Shown here piece by piece: positions 7,577 through 50,033 of a stretch of 64,000 nucleotides of DNA. The translations under genes and the position numbers were made by a program. The number at the start of each line of letters is the position of its first letter. Position 1 is the stretch's first letter. The notes beneath the pieces are model-generated. The model searched no databases, was not told where the DNA came from, and saw nothing but the letters and a program-made list of their open reading frames with translations. The stretch covers positions 30,823 to 94,822 of the IMG/VR virus record IMGVR_UViG_3300009059_000716. One strand, 5' to 3'. Origin of the DNA: a virus.

Positions 7577-8029
7577 ATGAAAGATCAATTAGTAGACTGT
7601 AAACGATGCGGAGGAAACGCATGTTACGAACAGCACATAGACGAATCAACAACTACCTGGTTATGTATGGGGTGCGGGTTTACAACCTCAACTCTAATGA
7701 ATGAAGGAGGAAAAGTAGTAGGGGACTTAATAGAAACTTCTCCAACTCTTTACAAAGATCTACTCTTCACAGACGATACTAAAAAAGTATGGGCTCCAGC
7801 AACAATGACATTACCAGAAAAAGGAATGGTATTCTTAGATGGTACATCAGAAAAGGAATGGAAATGGGCTGCAGTAAAAGCTATTAAGATTACAGAGGAG
7901 GAAAGAAAAGTAAAAAACTTCCCTAACGATCAGACATATAAAATGGATATGGCTGGCATTAAACATTACGGTCAAAGAGAGTTTATGGATGCTTTAGAGT
8001 TAATTGGTTTCTACGAAATAGGAGAGTAA
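7577..8029 (+). CDS. Zinc-ribbon protein of the glycan operon
   Basis: A 150-residue protein. The N-terminus has two cysteine pairs, CKRCGGNAC and CMGCGF (residues 8-34), that form a zinc ribbon. The rest is an alpha/beta region rich in Trp, Lys and Asp (residues 60-150) with no catalytic motif I recognise. It lies between glycosyltransferase genes with 2-base and 0-base spacings, so it belongs to the same operon. It could be an accessory or DNA-binding protein. Confidence 0.6.
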   Translation: MKDQLVDCKRCGGNACYEQHIDESTTTWLCMGCGFTTSTLMNEGGKVVGDLIETSPTLYKDLLFTDDTKKVWAPATMTLPEKGMVFLDGTSEKEWKWAAVKAIKITEEERKVKNFPNDQTYKMDMAGIKHYGQREFMDALELIGFYEIGE

Positions 8030-37916: not shown

Positions 37917-37953
37917 TTGATTATTTAATTTATTCTTCGTATATTTAGGTATA
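37917..37953 (+). promoter_or_regulatory. Bacteroidota-type promoter
   Basis: TTG at 37917-37919, a 20-nt spacer, TATATTTAGGTATA from 37940. It drives the structured leader at 37964 and the gene at 38046. Confidence 0.75.
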
Positions 37954-37963
37954 GAAATTAAGA

Positions 37964-38031
37964 AATAAGTATTGCTTGCGGTTGGCAAAGCATGGATAAA
38001 GGCAGATAAGCCCATGCACTTATTCTTTTTT
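37964..38031 (+). ncRNA. Candidate three-way-junction RNA / structured leader
   Basis: The outer stem AATAAGT (37964-37970) pairs with ACTTATT (38018-38024). It encloses hairpin TTGC/GCAA (37972-37975, 37985-37988) and a second hairpin GCATG/CATGC (37990-37994, 38013-38017) with inner GGC/GCC. A C and seven Ts follow (38025-38032). It lies between a promoter and the gene at 38046, where the other promoters have a plain short leader. It could be a small RNA or a regulatory leader. Seen in the sequence; function inferred. Confidence 0.5.
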
Positions 38032-38045
38032 AAAAAATAAATGTT

Positions 38046-38882: not shown

Positions 38883-39677
38883 ATGACACGTACAGAAATT
38901 TTAAAGATTAGATTAGACGAGCTTAGTAATGAAAATACCAAGCTTGATGCTAGAGTAAGAAACTTGTATATTAGAAGACAGAAAGAACTTATTAATGTCT
39001 TAAGAGACTGGTTTATTCCTTTCAATATAGAAGATCAAGATGTTACTTTCAACTTTACTGAGTATAGAGTTGAGGTATTGAAAAAACAAAAAGAAGAAAA
39101 TAAGGCCATCTTCTGGTTTAAATTGAGAGAAGAGTGGAACGATAAAACTACTTTTACTGGATTTGAACTAAATAGTTATTATGGAGGAGCGATAATTAGC
39201 GATGATACTGTTACAACAATGATATTAACTGCTAAATGGAGTCAGTTTGTATTAGATTATCAAGATGATATTATTGCCGAACTTAATATGGTTCAAGAGA
39301 GATATGAAAAGTATATAACTATACTAAGAGATAAACAATATGAGTTGAAAAAGTCTATCAATCAACAGCAATCAGATATTAATGAGTTGAGAAAAGAAGA
39401 GATCTTATCTAAACTAACTACTGAAGGAATAGAGTTAGATACAAATAAGAAAGAGAATAAGGATTCATATCTTCCATCTTTAGAAGTAAAGTTTGATTGG
39501 ACTTTAAGATCAGTTAAAGCGTTAAAAGTTTTGAGAATGACTACTTCTAAAAAGTCAGCTGATGTTGAAGTTACAACAAGAGATTGGCAAGGAGGTTTAC
39601 ACAAAACAATAGTAGAAAGAGTCAGAATGGATAATATTTTAGGCTTTGTAAGATACAATGAGGATATAATAATTTAA
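38883..39677 (+). CDS. Coiled-coil protein
   Basis: A 264-residue protein. Helical N-terminus (residues 1-40), a beta-rich region (45-110) and a long heptad-rich coiled coil (about 120-175, DDIIAELNMVQERYEKYITI onward), then a basic C-terminal part. No catalytic motif. It is co-transcribed with the next two genes. Function unknown. Confidence 0.6.
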   Translation: MTRTEILKIRLDELSNENTKLDARVRNLYIRRQKELINVLRDWFIPFNIEDQDVTFNFTEYRVEVLKKQKEENKAIFWFKLREEWNDKTTFTGFELNSYYGGAIISDDTVTTMILTAKWSQFVLDYQDDIIAELNMVQERYEKYITILRDKQYELKKSINQQQSDINELRKEEILSKLTTEGIELDTNKKENKDSYLPSLEVKFDWTLRSVKALKVLRMTTSKKSADVEVTTRDWQGGLHKTIVERVRMDNILGFVRYNEDIII

Positions 39678-39680
39678 GTT

Positions 39681-39947
39681 ATGGTAGAAATATTTCCAGC
39701 ATATAGAAAAGCAATTAAAGTTATAGAATCTAGTGAAACATTACAACATTTGGAAGGTGCTAGAAAGTTTATTAATAACTTCTTCAGAGCTTATTCAATT
39801 CCTTACGAAGTCAGAAAAAGAAAGTTTGGTTGGGAGAACTTAAATAGTGAAACAAAAGTTGAAATAAGACAGCCTAATACGCTAGCAGCACATATGTATG
39901 AAGAACTGTTAATCATACTTGAAACAAAAGAAGCTAAATTTCAATGA
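39681..39947 (+). CDS. Small helical protein
   Basis: An 88-residue protein, mostly alpha-helical (YRKAIKVIESSETLQHLEGA onward) with a basic patch (RKRKFGWENL). It follows the coiled-coil gene by 3 bases and overlaps the next small gene by 4. Function unknown. Confidence 0.55.
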   Translation: MVEIFPAYRKAIKVIESSETLQHLEGARKFINNFFRAYSIPYEVRKRKFGWENLNSETKVEIRQPNTLAAHMYEELLIILETKEAKFQ

Positions 39948-40066
39948 GGGCACTAGCAAGACCAACCAGACTAAAATTATCACACAATCCTACTTCTCTA
40001 CTGATTGTTTCAATACAGAAGAAGTTAAGAAGAGAGAAGAGGAAGAAAGCTTATAGGATGTCATAA
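39944..40066 (+). CDS. Small very basic protein
   Basis: A 40-residue protein, MRALARPTRLKLSHNPTSLL then a Lys/Arg run (KKLRREKRKKAYR). It starts with an ATGA overlap. The composition suggests nucleic-acid or ribosome binding. It ends in the left arm of a weak hairpin. Confidence 0.5.
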   Translation: MRALARPTRLKLSHNPTSLLIVSIQKKLRREKRKKAYRMS

Positions 40067-40084
40067 CCCCTATATTATGTTTTT
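40062..40084 (+). terminator. Weak hairpin with T run
   Basis: CATAA (40062-40066) pairs with TTATG (40075-40079), followed by TTTTT. The 5-bp AT stem is weak; it precedes the strong terminator at 40102. Confidence 0.35.
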
Positions 40085-40101
40085 AATTATTATTAGAAGA
40101 G

Positions 40102-40133
40102 CCGGTAGACGTCATAACCCTACCGGTTTTTTT
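40102..40133 (+). terminator. Rho-independent terminator
   Basis: CCGGTAG (40102-40108) pairs with CTACCGG (40120-40126) around an 11-nt loop, then seven Ts. A clear intrinsic terminator ending the 38883-40066 unit. Confidence 0.9.
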
Positions 40134-40156
40134 ATTGAAAATAATTAACAAAAGAG

Positions 40157-40193
40157 TAGGTTCGTATTGTTATTCTTCTTATATTAAGGTATA
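40157..40193 (+). promoter_or_regulatory. Bacteroidota-type promoter, GTAGGTTCGTATT subclass
   Basis: TAG replaces TTG at 40157-40159, followed by the GGTTCGTATTG extension. A 20-nt spacer, TATATTAAGGTATA from 40180. It serves 40214. Confidence 0.7.
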
Positions 40194-40213
40194 GAAATTA
40201 AAAGATAAAGGTT

Positions 40214-40516
40214 ATGACAATTACAGCAATTAAAAAAGAAAACTTCAAAGCAGTTAAAGACTTATTAATCAAGAAGTACAACGCTTACAACATCGAAAAT
40301 GAAGGTAACTACTTTCATATGTTTATCGATTTTGAAGATGAAACTCTACAATGTGAATTAACAAGAGATTGTTCATTCGGAAGCTGGGATGCAACTAAAC
40401 TTTCAGGTGAGGGATGGACACAAGAAGAGATAGCTAAACAAGCAGCTGCTGAAAGATTAGAAAATGAAGTTTATGCTGATATGAAAAAAATAACTAAAGA
40501 AATAGTTTCTAGTTAG
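40214..40516 (+). CDS. Small acidic protein
   Basis: A 100-residue protein. N-terminal helices (KENFKAVKDLLIKKYNAYNI), a beta segment (FHMFIDFEDETLQCELTRDC) and a C-terminal helix. Two nearby cysteines but no zinc motif. Single-gene unit. Function unknown. Confidence 0.55.
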   Translation: MTITAIKKENFKAVKDLLIKKYNAYNIENEGNYFHMFIDFEDETLQCELTRDCSFGSWDATKLSGEGWTQEEIAKQAAAERLENEVYADMKKITKEIVSS

Positions 40517-40542
40517 AAATATTATTCTTATATTTAGGTATA
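40506..40542 (+). promoter_or_regulatory. Bacteroidota-type promoter for a structured RNA
   Basis: TTT at 40506-40508 in the place of TTG, a 20-nt spacer, TATATTTAGGTATA from 40529. It directly precedes the cloverleaf-like RNA. Confidence 0.6.
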
Positions 40543-40673
40543 ATAGTTGGGGTAAGTATATCGGTATGGAGCAAGTCCGATGTTAAAGAGTCCCTAGAGA
40601 GTAATTGGCTGAAATCATCCTAACCCTACCAGAAGTTAGGTTTCAACTCACTACCCAACATTATACTTTTTTA
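40541..40673 (+). ncRNA. Candidate cloverleaf-like structured RNA with terminator tail
   Basis: The closing stem GTTGGG (40546-40551) pairs with CCCAAC, and GTATAA with TTATAC extends it. Inside are ATCGG/CCGAT (40560-40564, 40577-40581), a weaker central hairpin (AGTC/GGCT, 40589-40610), and TGAAA/TTTCA stacked on CCTAAC/GTTAGG (40610-40645). The closing arm is followed by CTTTTTT. It has its own promoter, and no open frame accounts for it. It is not a tRNA: no T-arm or anticodon arm of standard form. It may be a discrete ncRNA or leader for the 40-residue gene at 40693. Confidence 0.55.
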
Positions 40674-40692
40674 AACTAAACAAATAAAGGTT

Positions 40693-40815
40693 ATGATTGA
40701 AACAAGAGAACTACTTAGAGAAGAATTAAGATTACTACTTGACGGTACAAACAATGTAGCGGAGACAGTAGAAGAGATCATCGCACACATCAGATGGAGA
40801 GAAGATAATTTATAA
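40693..40815 (+). CDS. Small acidic helical protein
   Basis: A 40-residue protein (MIETRELLREELRLLLDGTN onward) behind an AAAGGTTATG leader and downstream of the cloverleaf-like RNA. All-helical, charged. The leader and spacing support it as a real gene. Function unknown. Confidence 0.55.
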   Translation: MIETRELLREELRLLLDGTNNVAETVEEIIAHIRWREDNL

Positions 40816-40835
40816 TTCTAAAACAAATAAAAGTT

Positions 40836-41066
40836 ATGGCAACAGGATACAATTCAGTAATTAAGATCGAATGTATAAAAGGTTTCATTCCGGAAGGAGG
40901 AGATCTAGTAATAATGAAAGGAGATAGATTCTATCAATCTTCAGACTTCAGCGATGATTGGATTGGAGAGGTAGATGGAAGAATGGAAGGAATGATTATA
41001 TCTTTCTACACAGAACAACTAGCAAATAACTTTCAATTTGTAGGTAGAAAAATCTCCTTATATTAG
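40836..41066 (+). CDS. Small unrecognised protein
   Basis: A 76-residue beta-rich protein (MATGYNSVIKIECIKGFIPE onward), acidic, with a ATAAAAGTTATG leader. Probably read from the promoter at 40506. Function unknown. Confidence 0.55.
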   Translation: MATGYNSVIKIECIKGFIPEGGDLVIMKGDRFYQSSDFSDDWIGEVDGRMEGMIISFYTEQLANNFQFVGRKISLY

Positions 41067-41103
41067 TAGGTTCGTATTGATATTCTTCTTATATTAAGGT
41101 ATA
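41067..41103 (+). promoter_or_regulatory. Bacteroidota-type promoter, GTAGGTTCGTATT subclass
   Basis: TAG at 41067-41069 in the TTG position, GGTTCGTATTG, TATATTAAGGTATA from 41090. 33 bases to the ATG at 41123. Confidence 0.7.
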
Positions 41104-41122
41104 GAAATTAAAAATAAAGGTT

Positions 41123-41629
41123 ATGACAATTCAAAACGTATTATCATTAGAGAATTTAGTAGATGTTCAAGCGGTATTATCTGCAGCAACAAGAAGGGTA
41201 ATTGAGTTAAAAAATAACTTACCATCCTTTCCGGAAGTTAAAAAGCAGGCTGTTACTTTGAAGAAAGAGTTCAGAGCTTTAGTAAACGACGATTCTAAAT
41301 ACTATAATGACGATTTGACTGGCCGTGTTGAGATGATGAAGAATGAAGACGGGTCTAGATATTATGAAGGTTCGTTTAAAGTTATACCTTCAACAGGTCA
41401 AGAAGGAGTATATGATGAGGATTTGGGTTCACTTGCCGGACAGCCTAGATATGGATACAAATTTCAACTTGATTCTCCAGACCAGACATTAGAGATTGTT
41501 AATAAAGTATTACCAAAAGGATGGACTACAGAAGTTAAAATCGATAAGGGCTTAGTTCATGAAGGTGACGATTTAGTACCTTATTCTTCTTATTTAGTAA
41601 GTGTAAAATCTCCAAACTTTTTTAAGTAA
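41123..41629 (+). CDS. Unrecognised protein
   Basis: A 168-residue soluble protein. Helical N-terminus (SLENLVDVQAVLSAATRRVI), then a mixed acidic region with a QPRYGYKFQLDSPDQTLEIV strand-helix and a final beta segment. No catalytic motif. Single-gene unit with the standard AAAGGTTATG leader. Confidence 0.6.
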   Translation: MTIQNVLSLENLVDVQAVLSAATRRVIELKNNLPSFPEVKKQAVTLKKEFRALVNDDSKYYNDDLTGRVEMMKNEDGSRYYEGSFKVIPSTGQEGVYDEDLGSLAGQPRYGYKFQLDSPDQTLEIVNKVLPKGWTTEVKIDKGLVHEGDDLVPYSSYLVSVKSPNFFK

Positions 41630-44372: not shown

Positions 44373-44447
44373 ATGGATGATGAAAGGATTTACAAAGCGA
44401 TAGAAGATTCTATTTTAGAGGAGTGGAAGAGGACGGAGTTGGAGTGA
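44373..44447 (+). CDS. Possible 24-residue acidic peptide
   Basis: MDDERIYKAIEDSILEEWKR then TELE, starting 2 bases after the preceding stop. The end overlaps the first arm of the RNA element at 44442. Weak support because of length. Confidence 0.3.
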   Translation: MDDERIYKAIEDSILEEWKRTELE

Positions 44448-44504
44448 GGGGGCGCTTTCCTCTCTCGACAACGAAGTTGTCACGCGCATATTTCACGAAA
44501 GGTC
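44442..44504 (+). ncRNA. Candidate structured RNA element, copy B
   Basis: GAGTGAGG (44442-44449) pairs with CCTCTCTC (44459-44466, one mismatch) around a loop with GGCGCTTT. The next hairpin is GACAAC-GAA-GTTGTC (44467-44481), then ACGCGCATATTTCACGAAA. Loop GCGC can pair with tail GCGC. It matches copy A at 43140 in layout, loop GAA and tail, with stems changed in compensating fashion. Confidence 0.5.
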
Positions 44505-44928
44505 CTACCATCCTTCCTTACATTCTACAATAAGGACAAATATGTGATAACAAGCAAAGCTTGTCTCTGAGGTAGTTAGTGATTTGGGTGAACACTTCAT
44601 ATTAAACCCTAACGAACCTATAAGAGAGATAAGGATACATATGGTAGATAGAGGGTAAATGGCTTATTTCTACTTAAGTATAGAACATATTGTAAGTGTA
44701 TAGATAATACCTAATGGAGACAACGCTATATGGGGTTAAAGACATCTAAAGATTATCTATAGAAACCTAAAGACAACTAAAGAAGAACTAAAGATTCTAT
44801 ATAGATCAATAGGAATAGAGTGTGTAGAATAATGAAGGCTTGTGAATGGAATGAGATATATAAAGTACAGGCGTGTGCCTCCCTCCCTTCCCTTTTCAAA
44901 ATTCTATAGAAAATATATGGTCAAATAG
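44505..44928 (+). other. Non-coding stretch with hairpins and operator-like repeats
   Basis: No gene of convincing length. The stretch holds hairpins TCCTTA/TAAGGA (44515-44536) and ACAAGC-AAA-GCTTGT (44550-44564). It also holds a GGGT/ACCC pair near 44586-44612, the CTAWAGA array at 44746-44794 and a pyrimidine-rich run at 44877-44893. Together with copy B of the RNA element it may be one long non-coding transcript or a regulatory island. Confidence 0.45.
44746..44794 (+). repeat. Phased CTAWAGA array 1 (five units)
   Basis: CTAAAGA or CTATAGA at 44746, 44757, 44767, 44777 and 44788, spaced 11, 10, 10 and 11 bp. Same heptamer and phase as at 45334 and 45471. Confidence 0.7.
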
Positions 44929-45622: not shown

Positions 45623-45793
45623 GAGAGATTCCGGAAATTAGTAGGGTAGGTTTATATCACCTTGATGGCACCTTGCTATAACACTGCCAGTATAGTTCCC
45701 TAAGAGGTTGGGCATCGGCTCGGCTGCGCCATACCTGGTTTCATATTTCTGATGATTTTTCACTATATAGGGTTATATATATTTATATATTGT
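45623..45793. other. Convergent intergenic region with GC-rich hairpins
   Basis: No gene. It contains a CTAT/ATAG plus ACT/AGT hairpin (45676-45695) and a GGT-GGC/GCC-ACC hairpin (45706-45735), in a patch richer in GC than its surroundings, then AT-rich sequence. It lies between convergent genes and could act as a two-way terminator or a short RNA. Confidence 0.4.
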
Positions 45794-49048: not shown

Positions 49049-49354
49049 ATGGTACAGTACATAGTAATTACAGTATTAGTTGTATTCTCCGGAATTTTAT
49101 CTTATCTTATATATAACCTACTAAGAAAAGTAGAGAAATATGAAGATATAACCTTAGATCAAACTAAATACTTACAGAACATATCGAACATAATAGCAGA
49201 ATCTCAACAACACCTTTCAAAGTTAGATGAAAATGGGGTATTTCAATCTGATGATGAGGTTGGAGAATTCTTTAAACAAATGCAAGCAATACAGACTGAG
49301 CTAGACAAATACATGCTCCCCGAAAACTATGGCAAGGAAGAAATCCAAAGCTAA
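49049..49354 (+). CDS. Membrane-anchored coiled-coil protein
   Basis: A 101-residue protein with an N-terminal membrane segment (residues 3-23, YIVITVLVVFSGILSYLIY) and a helical, acidic rest with heptad features. It overlaps the sigma gene by 26 bases. Function unknown. Confidence 0.6.
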   Translation: MVQYIVITVLVVFSGILSYLIYNLLRKVEKYEDITLDQTKYLQNISNIIAESQQHLSKLDENGVFQSDDEVGEFFKQMQAIQTELDKYMLPENYGKEEIQS

Positions 49355-50033
49355 CTACTTTACCTCAGAAACAGAAGATTATATAGTAAAATATAACCAA
49401 TCAACTGATCACGATTACAGAGCTAAAATATTTACAGACCACATTTATTTACCGTTTTATAAATTAGCGGAAAATATAATACATACATTTAAATTCTACT
49501 ACACGGATGTAGAGCGGATAGAAGACCTCAAACACGAGGTCGTTTCTGTTTTACTTGAACAGAAGATAGATAAGTTCGATCCTACGAACGGAGCTAAAGC
49601 ATATTCTTATTTTGGTACAATAGTTAAAAGATGGTTAATTAACTACAATAATATTAACTACAAAAAACTAAAACAGATAGGTTCCTTTTCTGATATAGAA
49701 GAATCATATGAAACAACAGGAGACCCAGATTTTTCTAACGCTAGGACATTGAGTACATTTGTAGACGAATGGGTTGAAGAGATGTATAACGAAATTGATT
49801 ATATATTTCCTAAATCTGATGAGTTAAAAATAGCAGATGCTGTTTTGACTATATTTAAAACAAGGAACGATTTAGATATATTTAAGAAAAAAGCTTTATA
49901 TATCTATATAAGAGAAATGACTGATTGCGAAACACCGCAACTAACTAAAGTATTAAATGTACTTAAAAGTAATTTCTACGAAAAATACCAACATTACTAC
50001 GATCTAGGTCTTCTTTCCCGAAAACCATTGTAA
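49329..50033 (+). CDS. T4 gp55-like late sigma factor
   Basis: A 234-residue protein. EDLKHEVVSVLLEQKIDKFD, then GAKAYSYFGTIVKRWLINYN, is the sigma-70 region-2-like signature of gp55-type late sigma factors: acidic helix, FDPxNGxxAYSYF, basic helix. There is no region 4, as in gp55. It would direct host RNA polymerase to late promoters of the structural genes. It begins within the preceding gene and sits just before the baseplate cluster. Recognised by motif; a clamp/co-activator gene (gp45/gp33) is not in the window. Confidence 0.8.
   Translation: MARKKSKANYFTSETEDYIVKYNQSTDHDYRAKIFTDHIYLPFYKLAENIIHTFKFYYTDVERIEDLKHEVVSVLLEQKIDKFDPTNGAKAYSYFGTIVKRWLINYNNINYKKLKQIGSFSDIEESYETTGDPDFSNARTLSTFVDEWVEEMYNEIDYIFPKSDELKIADAVLTIFKTRNDLDIFKKKALYIYIREMTDCETPQLTKVLNVLKSNFYEKYQHYYDLGLLSRKPL

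What the first reader, a model, noticed from the sequence alone, without database searches (positions are those of the whole stretch)
40541..40673. Cloverleaf-like RNA with its own promoter and terminator tail
A 130-nt non-coding stretch starts at the expected transcription start of a promoter. It folds into a closing stem (GTATAA plus GTTGGG with CCCAAC plus TTATAC), two clear inner hairpins and one weak one, and ends in a run of Ts. It is not a tRNA or any riboswitch class I recognise.
Basis: partly seen in the sequence, partly recalled or inferred. Interest (0 to 1): 0.75.

Follow-up and report, generated by a model that had tools for sequence, protein, structure and literature searches.

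The report
Orphan structured leader RNA in phage
A phage of Flavobacterium-like bacteria carries a 130-base non-coding insert, able to fold back on itself, exactly between a promoter and the start of a small gene; it has no detectable relative anywhere we could look, so it is probably a home-grown regulatory leader of the mRNA, with its function unproven.

Summary
The sequence feature is real, but "own promoter and terminator" overstates it. A phage-wide promoter at 40525-40542 (24 copies in the window; 0.9 expected) is followed by about 130 nt of non-coding DNA whose two ends pair (13 bp, one bulged A), then T6. This is the only such stem in 64 kb, and a stem with a T tail arose once in 100 shuffled windows. 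Overall folding energy is ordinary (z -0.3 to -1.5). The shape is a closed two- to three-helix junction, not a cloverleaf. No tRNA, Rfam, phage, plasmid, IMG/VR or Bacteroidota match was found.

Key result: in the closest relative (L009) the same promoter and gene are joined directly, 21 nt apart; here they are 150 nt apart. About 110 other promoters of this phage group lie 0-42 nt from their gene. The promoter before the RNA is the only recognisable one for the two small genes downstream (40693, 40836). The RNA is therefore most likely a structured 5' leader, perhaps partly released as a small RNA. A second, smaller insert of the same layout (37954-38045) sits in the same phage and is also missing from L009.

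With no homologue, covariation cannot be tested. New member of a known kind; modest interest.

The parts
40505..40542 (+). phage promoter: upstream GTTTC (40505-40509; GTTG in most other copies) and the conserved TTCTTATATTTAGGTATA (40525-40542), containing a TAnnTTT(G)-like -7 box at 40529-40536
   Evidence: 24 copies in the window vs 0.93 expected; alignment of promoters; -7 rule from PMC6847099
40541..40672 (+). non-coding insert / leader RNA (predicted start 40541-40542, possibly 40538; ends in the T run)
   Evidence: sequence; absent from the syntenic promoter-gene gap of L009 7936-7956; no ORF of 40 aa or more inside
40538..40551 (+). 5' arm of the closing stem: GTATAAT, bulged A40545, GTTGGG
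40654..40666 (+). 3' arm of the closing stem: CCCAAC ATTATAC
40558..40583 (+). inner hairpin 1, 7 bp, loop TATGGAGCAAGT
   Evidence: pair probabilities 0.68-1.0
40610..40645 (+). inner hairpin 2, 5 + 6 bp with an internal TCAT bulge, loop CCTACCAGAA
   Evidence: pair probabilities 0.76-0.97
40595..40653 (+). weak helix 40595-40602 / 40646-40653 enclosing hairpin 2
   Evidence: pair probabilities 0.19-0.40
40667..40672 (+). T6 run after the closing stem
   Evidence: no canonical terminator recognised
40660..40697 (+). alternative hairpin: 40660-40670 pairs with 40686-40697 (AAAGG and the ATG of gene 40693); competes with the outer closing stem
   Evidence: -2.8 kcal/mol alone; stronger than in 95-96% of shuffles only if the start is at 40541-40542
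40693..40815 (+). small gene (40 aa) directly behind the insert, unknown function; homologue L009 7957-8085
40836..41066 (+). second small gene (76 aa) with no promoter of its own in the window; homologue L009 8419-8619
40214..40516 (+). upstream flanking gene (100 aa), conserved at 78% in L009 7607-7909; anchors the synteny
37936..38045 (+). second promoter with a long structured leader (RNA-B): closing stem AAGAA-A-TAAGT / ACTTA-TTCTT and T run, before gene 38046; absent from L009 6014-6032
   Evidence: present also in near-identical contig L071

Best explanation
A lineage-specific, about 130-nt non-coding sequence was gained between a phage promoter and the start codon of a small accessory gene, giving that gene an unusually long 5' leader that folds back on itself. 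I think its main job is in cis: the junction closed by the 5'-3' stem caps the 5' end of the 40693-40836 mRNA and tunes its stability and/or translation. Some transcripts may stop at the T run and be released as a small RNA. Shown here: the sequence, the promoter family, the insertion relative to the closest relative, the lack of any other recognisable phage promoter for the downstream genes, and the predicted closing stem. Inferred: that it is transcribed and folds so in the cell, and what it does.
For: Promoter at 40525-40542 belongs to a family of 24 copies vs 0.93 expected. In L009 the same flanking genes lie in the same order, and the promoter (7918-7935) is followed 21 nt later by the homologue of gene 40693; in the window the gap is 150 nt. 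Across the related records about 110 promoters have 0-42 nt to the ATG, and this one is an outlier. No other phage promoter lies between the RNA and genes 40693/40836. The end-to-end stem is the only one of its size in the window, and a stem with a T tail arose once in 100 shuffled windows. A second leader insert of the same layout sits in the same genome. Structured leaders in T4-like phages have precedent: manA, wcaG and PhotoRC-II (PMC2864571).
Against: Global folding energy is ordinary. No homologue, hence no covariation. No expression data. The RBS-hiding alternative pairing depends on the exact transcription start and is only nominally unusual. The insert is seen in a single assembly: two near-identical contigs end on either side of it, at 39538 and 41731.
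Confidence: 0.5

Rival explanations
1. A free-standing small RNA gene: transcription starts at about 40541, stops at the T run after the closing stem, and the stable ~130-nt RNA acts in trans (target pairing, protein decoy or counter-defence); the downstream gene is expressed only by read-through.
For: Ends pair with each other and are followed at once by T6. T4 has analogous late small RNAs of unknown function, RNAC and RNAD (PMC9697503). A promoter followed by no ORF also occurs in relative immuto at 67536 (-).
Against: No canonical terminator: the pairs next to the T run are A-U and the loop is over 100 nt. It would leave genes 40693 and 40836 without a promoter. Only 20 nt separate the T run from the start codon.
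Confidence: 0.25
2. A non-functional insertion (random gain by recombination between the many promoter copies, or a decayed element) that happens to fold.
For: Energy z-scores of -0.3 to -1.5 are within the range of shuffled sequence; stems of this length without a T tail are expected about 2.4 times per shuffled window; found in only one assembly.
Against: The stem spans exactly from the promoter's start region to the T run, and the second insert in the same phage has the same layout.
Confidence: 0.2
3. A divergent member of a known RNA class (tRNA, tmRNA, ribozyme, riboswitch, 6S-flavo).
For: Size and closed junction are compatible with several classes.
Against: No Rfam family reaches its gathering score anywhere in the window, and only chance-level matches appear in the relaxed search; ARAGORN finds nothing.
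Confidence: 0.03
4. A small mobile DNA element (MITE-like) with 13-bp terminal inverted repeats.
For: Absent from the empty site in L009; terminal inverted repeat.
Against: No other copy in the 94.8-kb record beyond the promoter; exact 17- and 19-base probes in IMG/VR found only unrelated coding DNA; no target-site duplication visible by eye.
Confidence: 0.03

Closest known systems
manA, wcaG and PhotoRC-II motifs of T4-like cyanophages (Weinberg et al. 2010, PMC2864571)
   Same: Structured RNAs in potential 5' leaders of accessory genes of T4-like phages.
   Different: Those are conserved families with covariation and associated with metabolic or photosynthesis genes; this one is an orphan before tiny genes of unknown function and matches no Rfam family.
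T4 RNAC and RNAD (PMC9697503)
   Same: Small RNAs of unknown function in a T4-type phage; their length of roughly 120-140 nt is from my own knowledge.
   Different: In T4 they lie among tRNA genes (own knowledge); here there is no tRNA in the window and the RNA lies directly between a promoter and a gene. No sequence comparison with them was made one to one.
Bacteroidota primary-sigma promoters (TTTG / TAnnTTTG; PMC6847099, PMC7366714)
   Same: The phage motif carries a TAnnTTT(A/G)-like box and predicts the start at 40541-40542.
   Different: The phage motif is longer and more uniform (TTCTTATATTWAGGTATA), so a phage-modified or phage-specific recognition is possible.

Membership tests
tRNA / tmRNA | cloverleaf with T-arm and anticodon arm, detected by ARAGORN or Rfam RF00005 | tested here: not met
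   0 genes in the window; no Rfam hit at gathering score, none in the relaxed search of 40200-41000
Known riboswitch, ribozyme or sRNA family of Rfam 15 | score at or above the family's gathering cut-off | tested here: not met
   none in 64 kb; best relaxed match is S774 at 23.9 bits vs cut-off 48
Structured 5' leader (cis-regulatory RNA) | lies between promoter and start codon on the same strand with no other promoter for the gene | tested here: met
   gene order and promoter in L009. Absence of other, unrecognised promoters is not excluded
Structured 5' leader (cis-regulatory RNA) | covariation of stems across homologues | tested here: inconclusive
   no homologue found, so it cannot be counted
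Structured 5' leader (cis-regulatory RNA) | two alternative folds that expose or hide the RBS or a terminator | tested here: inconclusive
   an RBS-hiding hairpin competes with the closing stem only if the start is at 40541-40542; 4-4.5% of shuffles hide it as well, 29.5% if the start is 40540
Free-standing intrinsically terminated sRNA | G+C-rich hairpin directly followed by a T run | tested here: not met
   no terminator-like site reported in 39900-41200; only the long-range stem precedes T6
Free-standing sRNA | discrete ~130-nt transcript | not testable with these tools
   needs RNA-seq, Term-seq or northern blot

The most novel reading that the evidence does not exclude
The insert is a previously undescribed phage RNA switch: the strand 40660-40670 pairs either with the 5' end (closing stem, gene on) or with the ribosome-binding region and start codon of gene 40693 (gene off), with the junction as sensor; the second leader (RNA-B) would be another member of a set of fast-turning-over leader RNAs of these phages.
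Probability: 0.1. Interest if true: 0.6.

Novelty: new member of a known kind. Interest (0 to 1): 0.3.

Why it matters
If it is expressed, it shows that T4-like phages of Bacteroidota gain and lose structured leader RNAs at individual promoters on short evolutionary time scales. The presence/absence pair (window vs L009), with conserved promoter and gene, is a natural experiment for measuring what such a leader does.

Tried and rejected
Known RNA classes. Homologues by blastn in phages and plasmids, exact 17- and 19-base probes in IMG/VR, a gapped stem-tolerant probe in IMG/VR and in 84,980 genomes, and a covariance model against all fetched loci and seven related records and 395 Bacteroidota genomes: only chance matches, many of them inside open frames of unrelated genes. 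L001 looked like a hit but lies in a coding frame ending at the contig edge. A look-alike motif (TTCCCTAAGAGGTTGG) in the conserved element at 45628-45759 was tested with a profile and is not related. An RBS-sequestering switch was modelled and is not clearly better than shuffled sequence. A MITE was rejected for lack of copies.

Full report
What the window is. The window is part of a 94.8-kb IMG/VR virus record. Several proteins have 60-90% identical relatives in other IMG/VR contigs (L009, L010, L012, L013), and one protein (49329-50033) is 62% identical to the Flavobacterium phage immuto (MW353175). It is a Bacteroidota phage; from the gene content I take it to be T4-like. No tRNA and no Rfam family is found in the 64 kb.

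Check of the observation. The described stems exist. The closing stem is GTATAAT-A-GTTGGG / CCCAAC-ATTATAC, 13 pairs with one bulged A, followed by T6. It is the only stem of that size in the window. Shuffled windows hold 2.4 such stems on average, but one followed by a T tail turned up once in 100 shuffles, and here the 5' arm also starts at a promoter. Two inner hairpins are well predicted; the third element is a weak enclosing helix, so the shape is a closed junction and not a cloverleaf. By total energy the RNA is unremarkable (z -0.29 from 40541, -1.47 from 40538).

Promoter and start. TTCTTATATTWAGGTATA occurs 24 times in the window within three mismatches (0.93 expected). Usually GTTG lies about 19 nt upstream and an ATG 20-30 nt downstream. 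It contains a TAnnTTT(A/G) box like that of the Bacteroidota primary sigma factor; with the spacing measured in F. johnsoniae (box at -12 to -5; PMC6847099) transcription starts at 40541-40542. The outermost three pairs of the closing stem would then lie outside the RNA; if the start is at 40538 they are inside. This matters for the predicted fold.

The decisive comparison. In L009 the flanking genes are in the same order. The homologue of 40214 (L009 7607-7909, 78% identical) is followed by the promoter (7918-7935) and, 21 nt later, by the homologue of 40693 (7957). In the window the same promoter and gene are 150 nt apart, and the extra ~130 nt are the RNA. Across eight records, about 110 such promoters lie 0-42 nt from the next start codon; the finding, at 152 nt by the same measure, is an outlier. 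The only other clear outlier in the window is 37936 (94 nt), whose leader also has a closing stem with a bulged A and a T run and is also missing from L009. So the RNA is a gained insert, and because no other phage promoter precedes genes 40693 and 40836, it is their leader as far as the sequence shows.

Terminator. The T run is preceded by A-U pairs of a long-range stem, and no canonical terminator is recognised. Partial termination is possible but not shown.

Search for relatives. BLAST in phages and plasmids, exact probes in IMG/VR, a stem-tolerant probe in IMG/VR and in genomes, a covariance model over loci and related records and 395 Bacteroidota genomes gave only chance matches. The model was built from one sequence, so it would miss distant relatives, and records very near the window may be left out of the collections. 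Two near-identical contigs of the same phage end on either side of the insert (39538 and 41731), so it is seen in one assembly only; the syntenic flanks make a chimera unlikely.

Mechanism. I favour a structured 5' leader acting in cis, with a possible released small RNA. A switch-like alternative exists on paper: 40660-40670 can pair with the AAAGG...ATG region of gene 40693 instead of with the 5' end. If the start is 40541-40542 the region is more hidden than in 95-96% of shuffles, but with a start at 40540 the result is ordinary and at 40538 it is open. I treat this as a hypothesis only.

Known relatives in kind. Structured leaders occur in T4-like cyanophages (manA, wcaG, PhotoRC-II; PMC2864571), and T4 makes small RNAs of unknown function, RNAC and RNAD (PMC9697503). 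The finding is a new, orphan example of that general kind. Without homologues neither structure nor function can be proved by sequence.

Noticed in passing
window 37954-38045: Second structured leader (RNA-B) between a phage promoter (37936) and gene 38046: closing stem AAGAA-A-UAAGU/ACUUA-UUCUU, inner hairpins, T run; absent from L009, present in near-identical contig L071. Fold z -0.71, no Rfam match.
   Followed up: partly
window 44438-44893; L009 12196-12670; L012 11064-11486; L013 2465-2895: Conserved non-coding block of about 450 nt with a purine-rich 5' end (GAGUGAGGGGGCG...) that pairs with a CCUCCCUCCC-type 3' end in the window and L009 and, with different letters, in L012; candidate large structured phage RNA with no Rfam match.
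   Followed up: partly
window 45628-45759; L009 13372-13512; L012 12318-12460; L013 3482-3622; L079 7765-7905 (-): Conserved ~130-nt non-coding element (AUAACACUGCCAGUAUAGUUCCCUAAGAGG...) in five related phages, partly similar to its own reverse complement; no Rfam match, weak consensus structure.
   Followed up: partly
L086 7536 (-), i.e. immuto MW353175 about 67536 on the minus strand: Phage promoter followed by no ORF but by a G+C-rich, hairpin-forming stretch opposite tiny annotated ORFs; possible small RNA gene.
   Followed up: no
L079 7474-7600 (G003): Promoter-like site followed by a non-coding stretch with a long closing repeat AAGATCTTAATG...CATATTAAGATC.
   Followed up: no
window 40099-40135 and L009 7488-7528: Intrinsic terminator GCCGGTAG...CTACCGGTTTTTTT with compensatory change in the relative (GCCGGAAG...CTTCCGG), showing that this phage does use strong compact terminators.
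   Followed up: no
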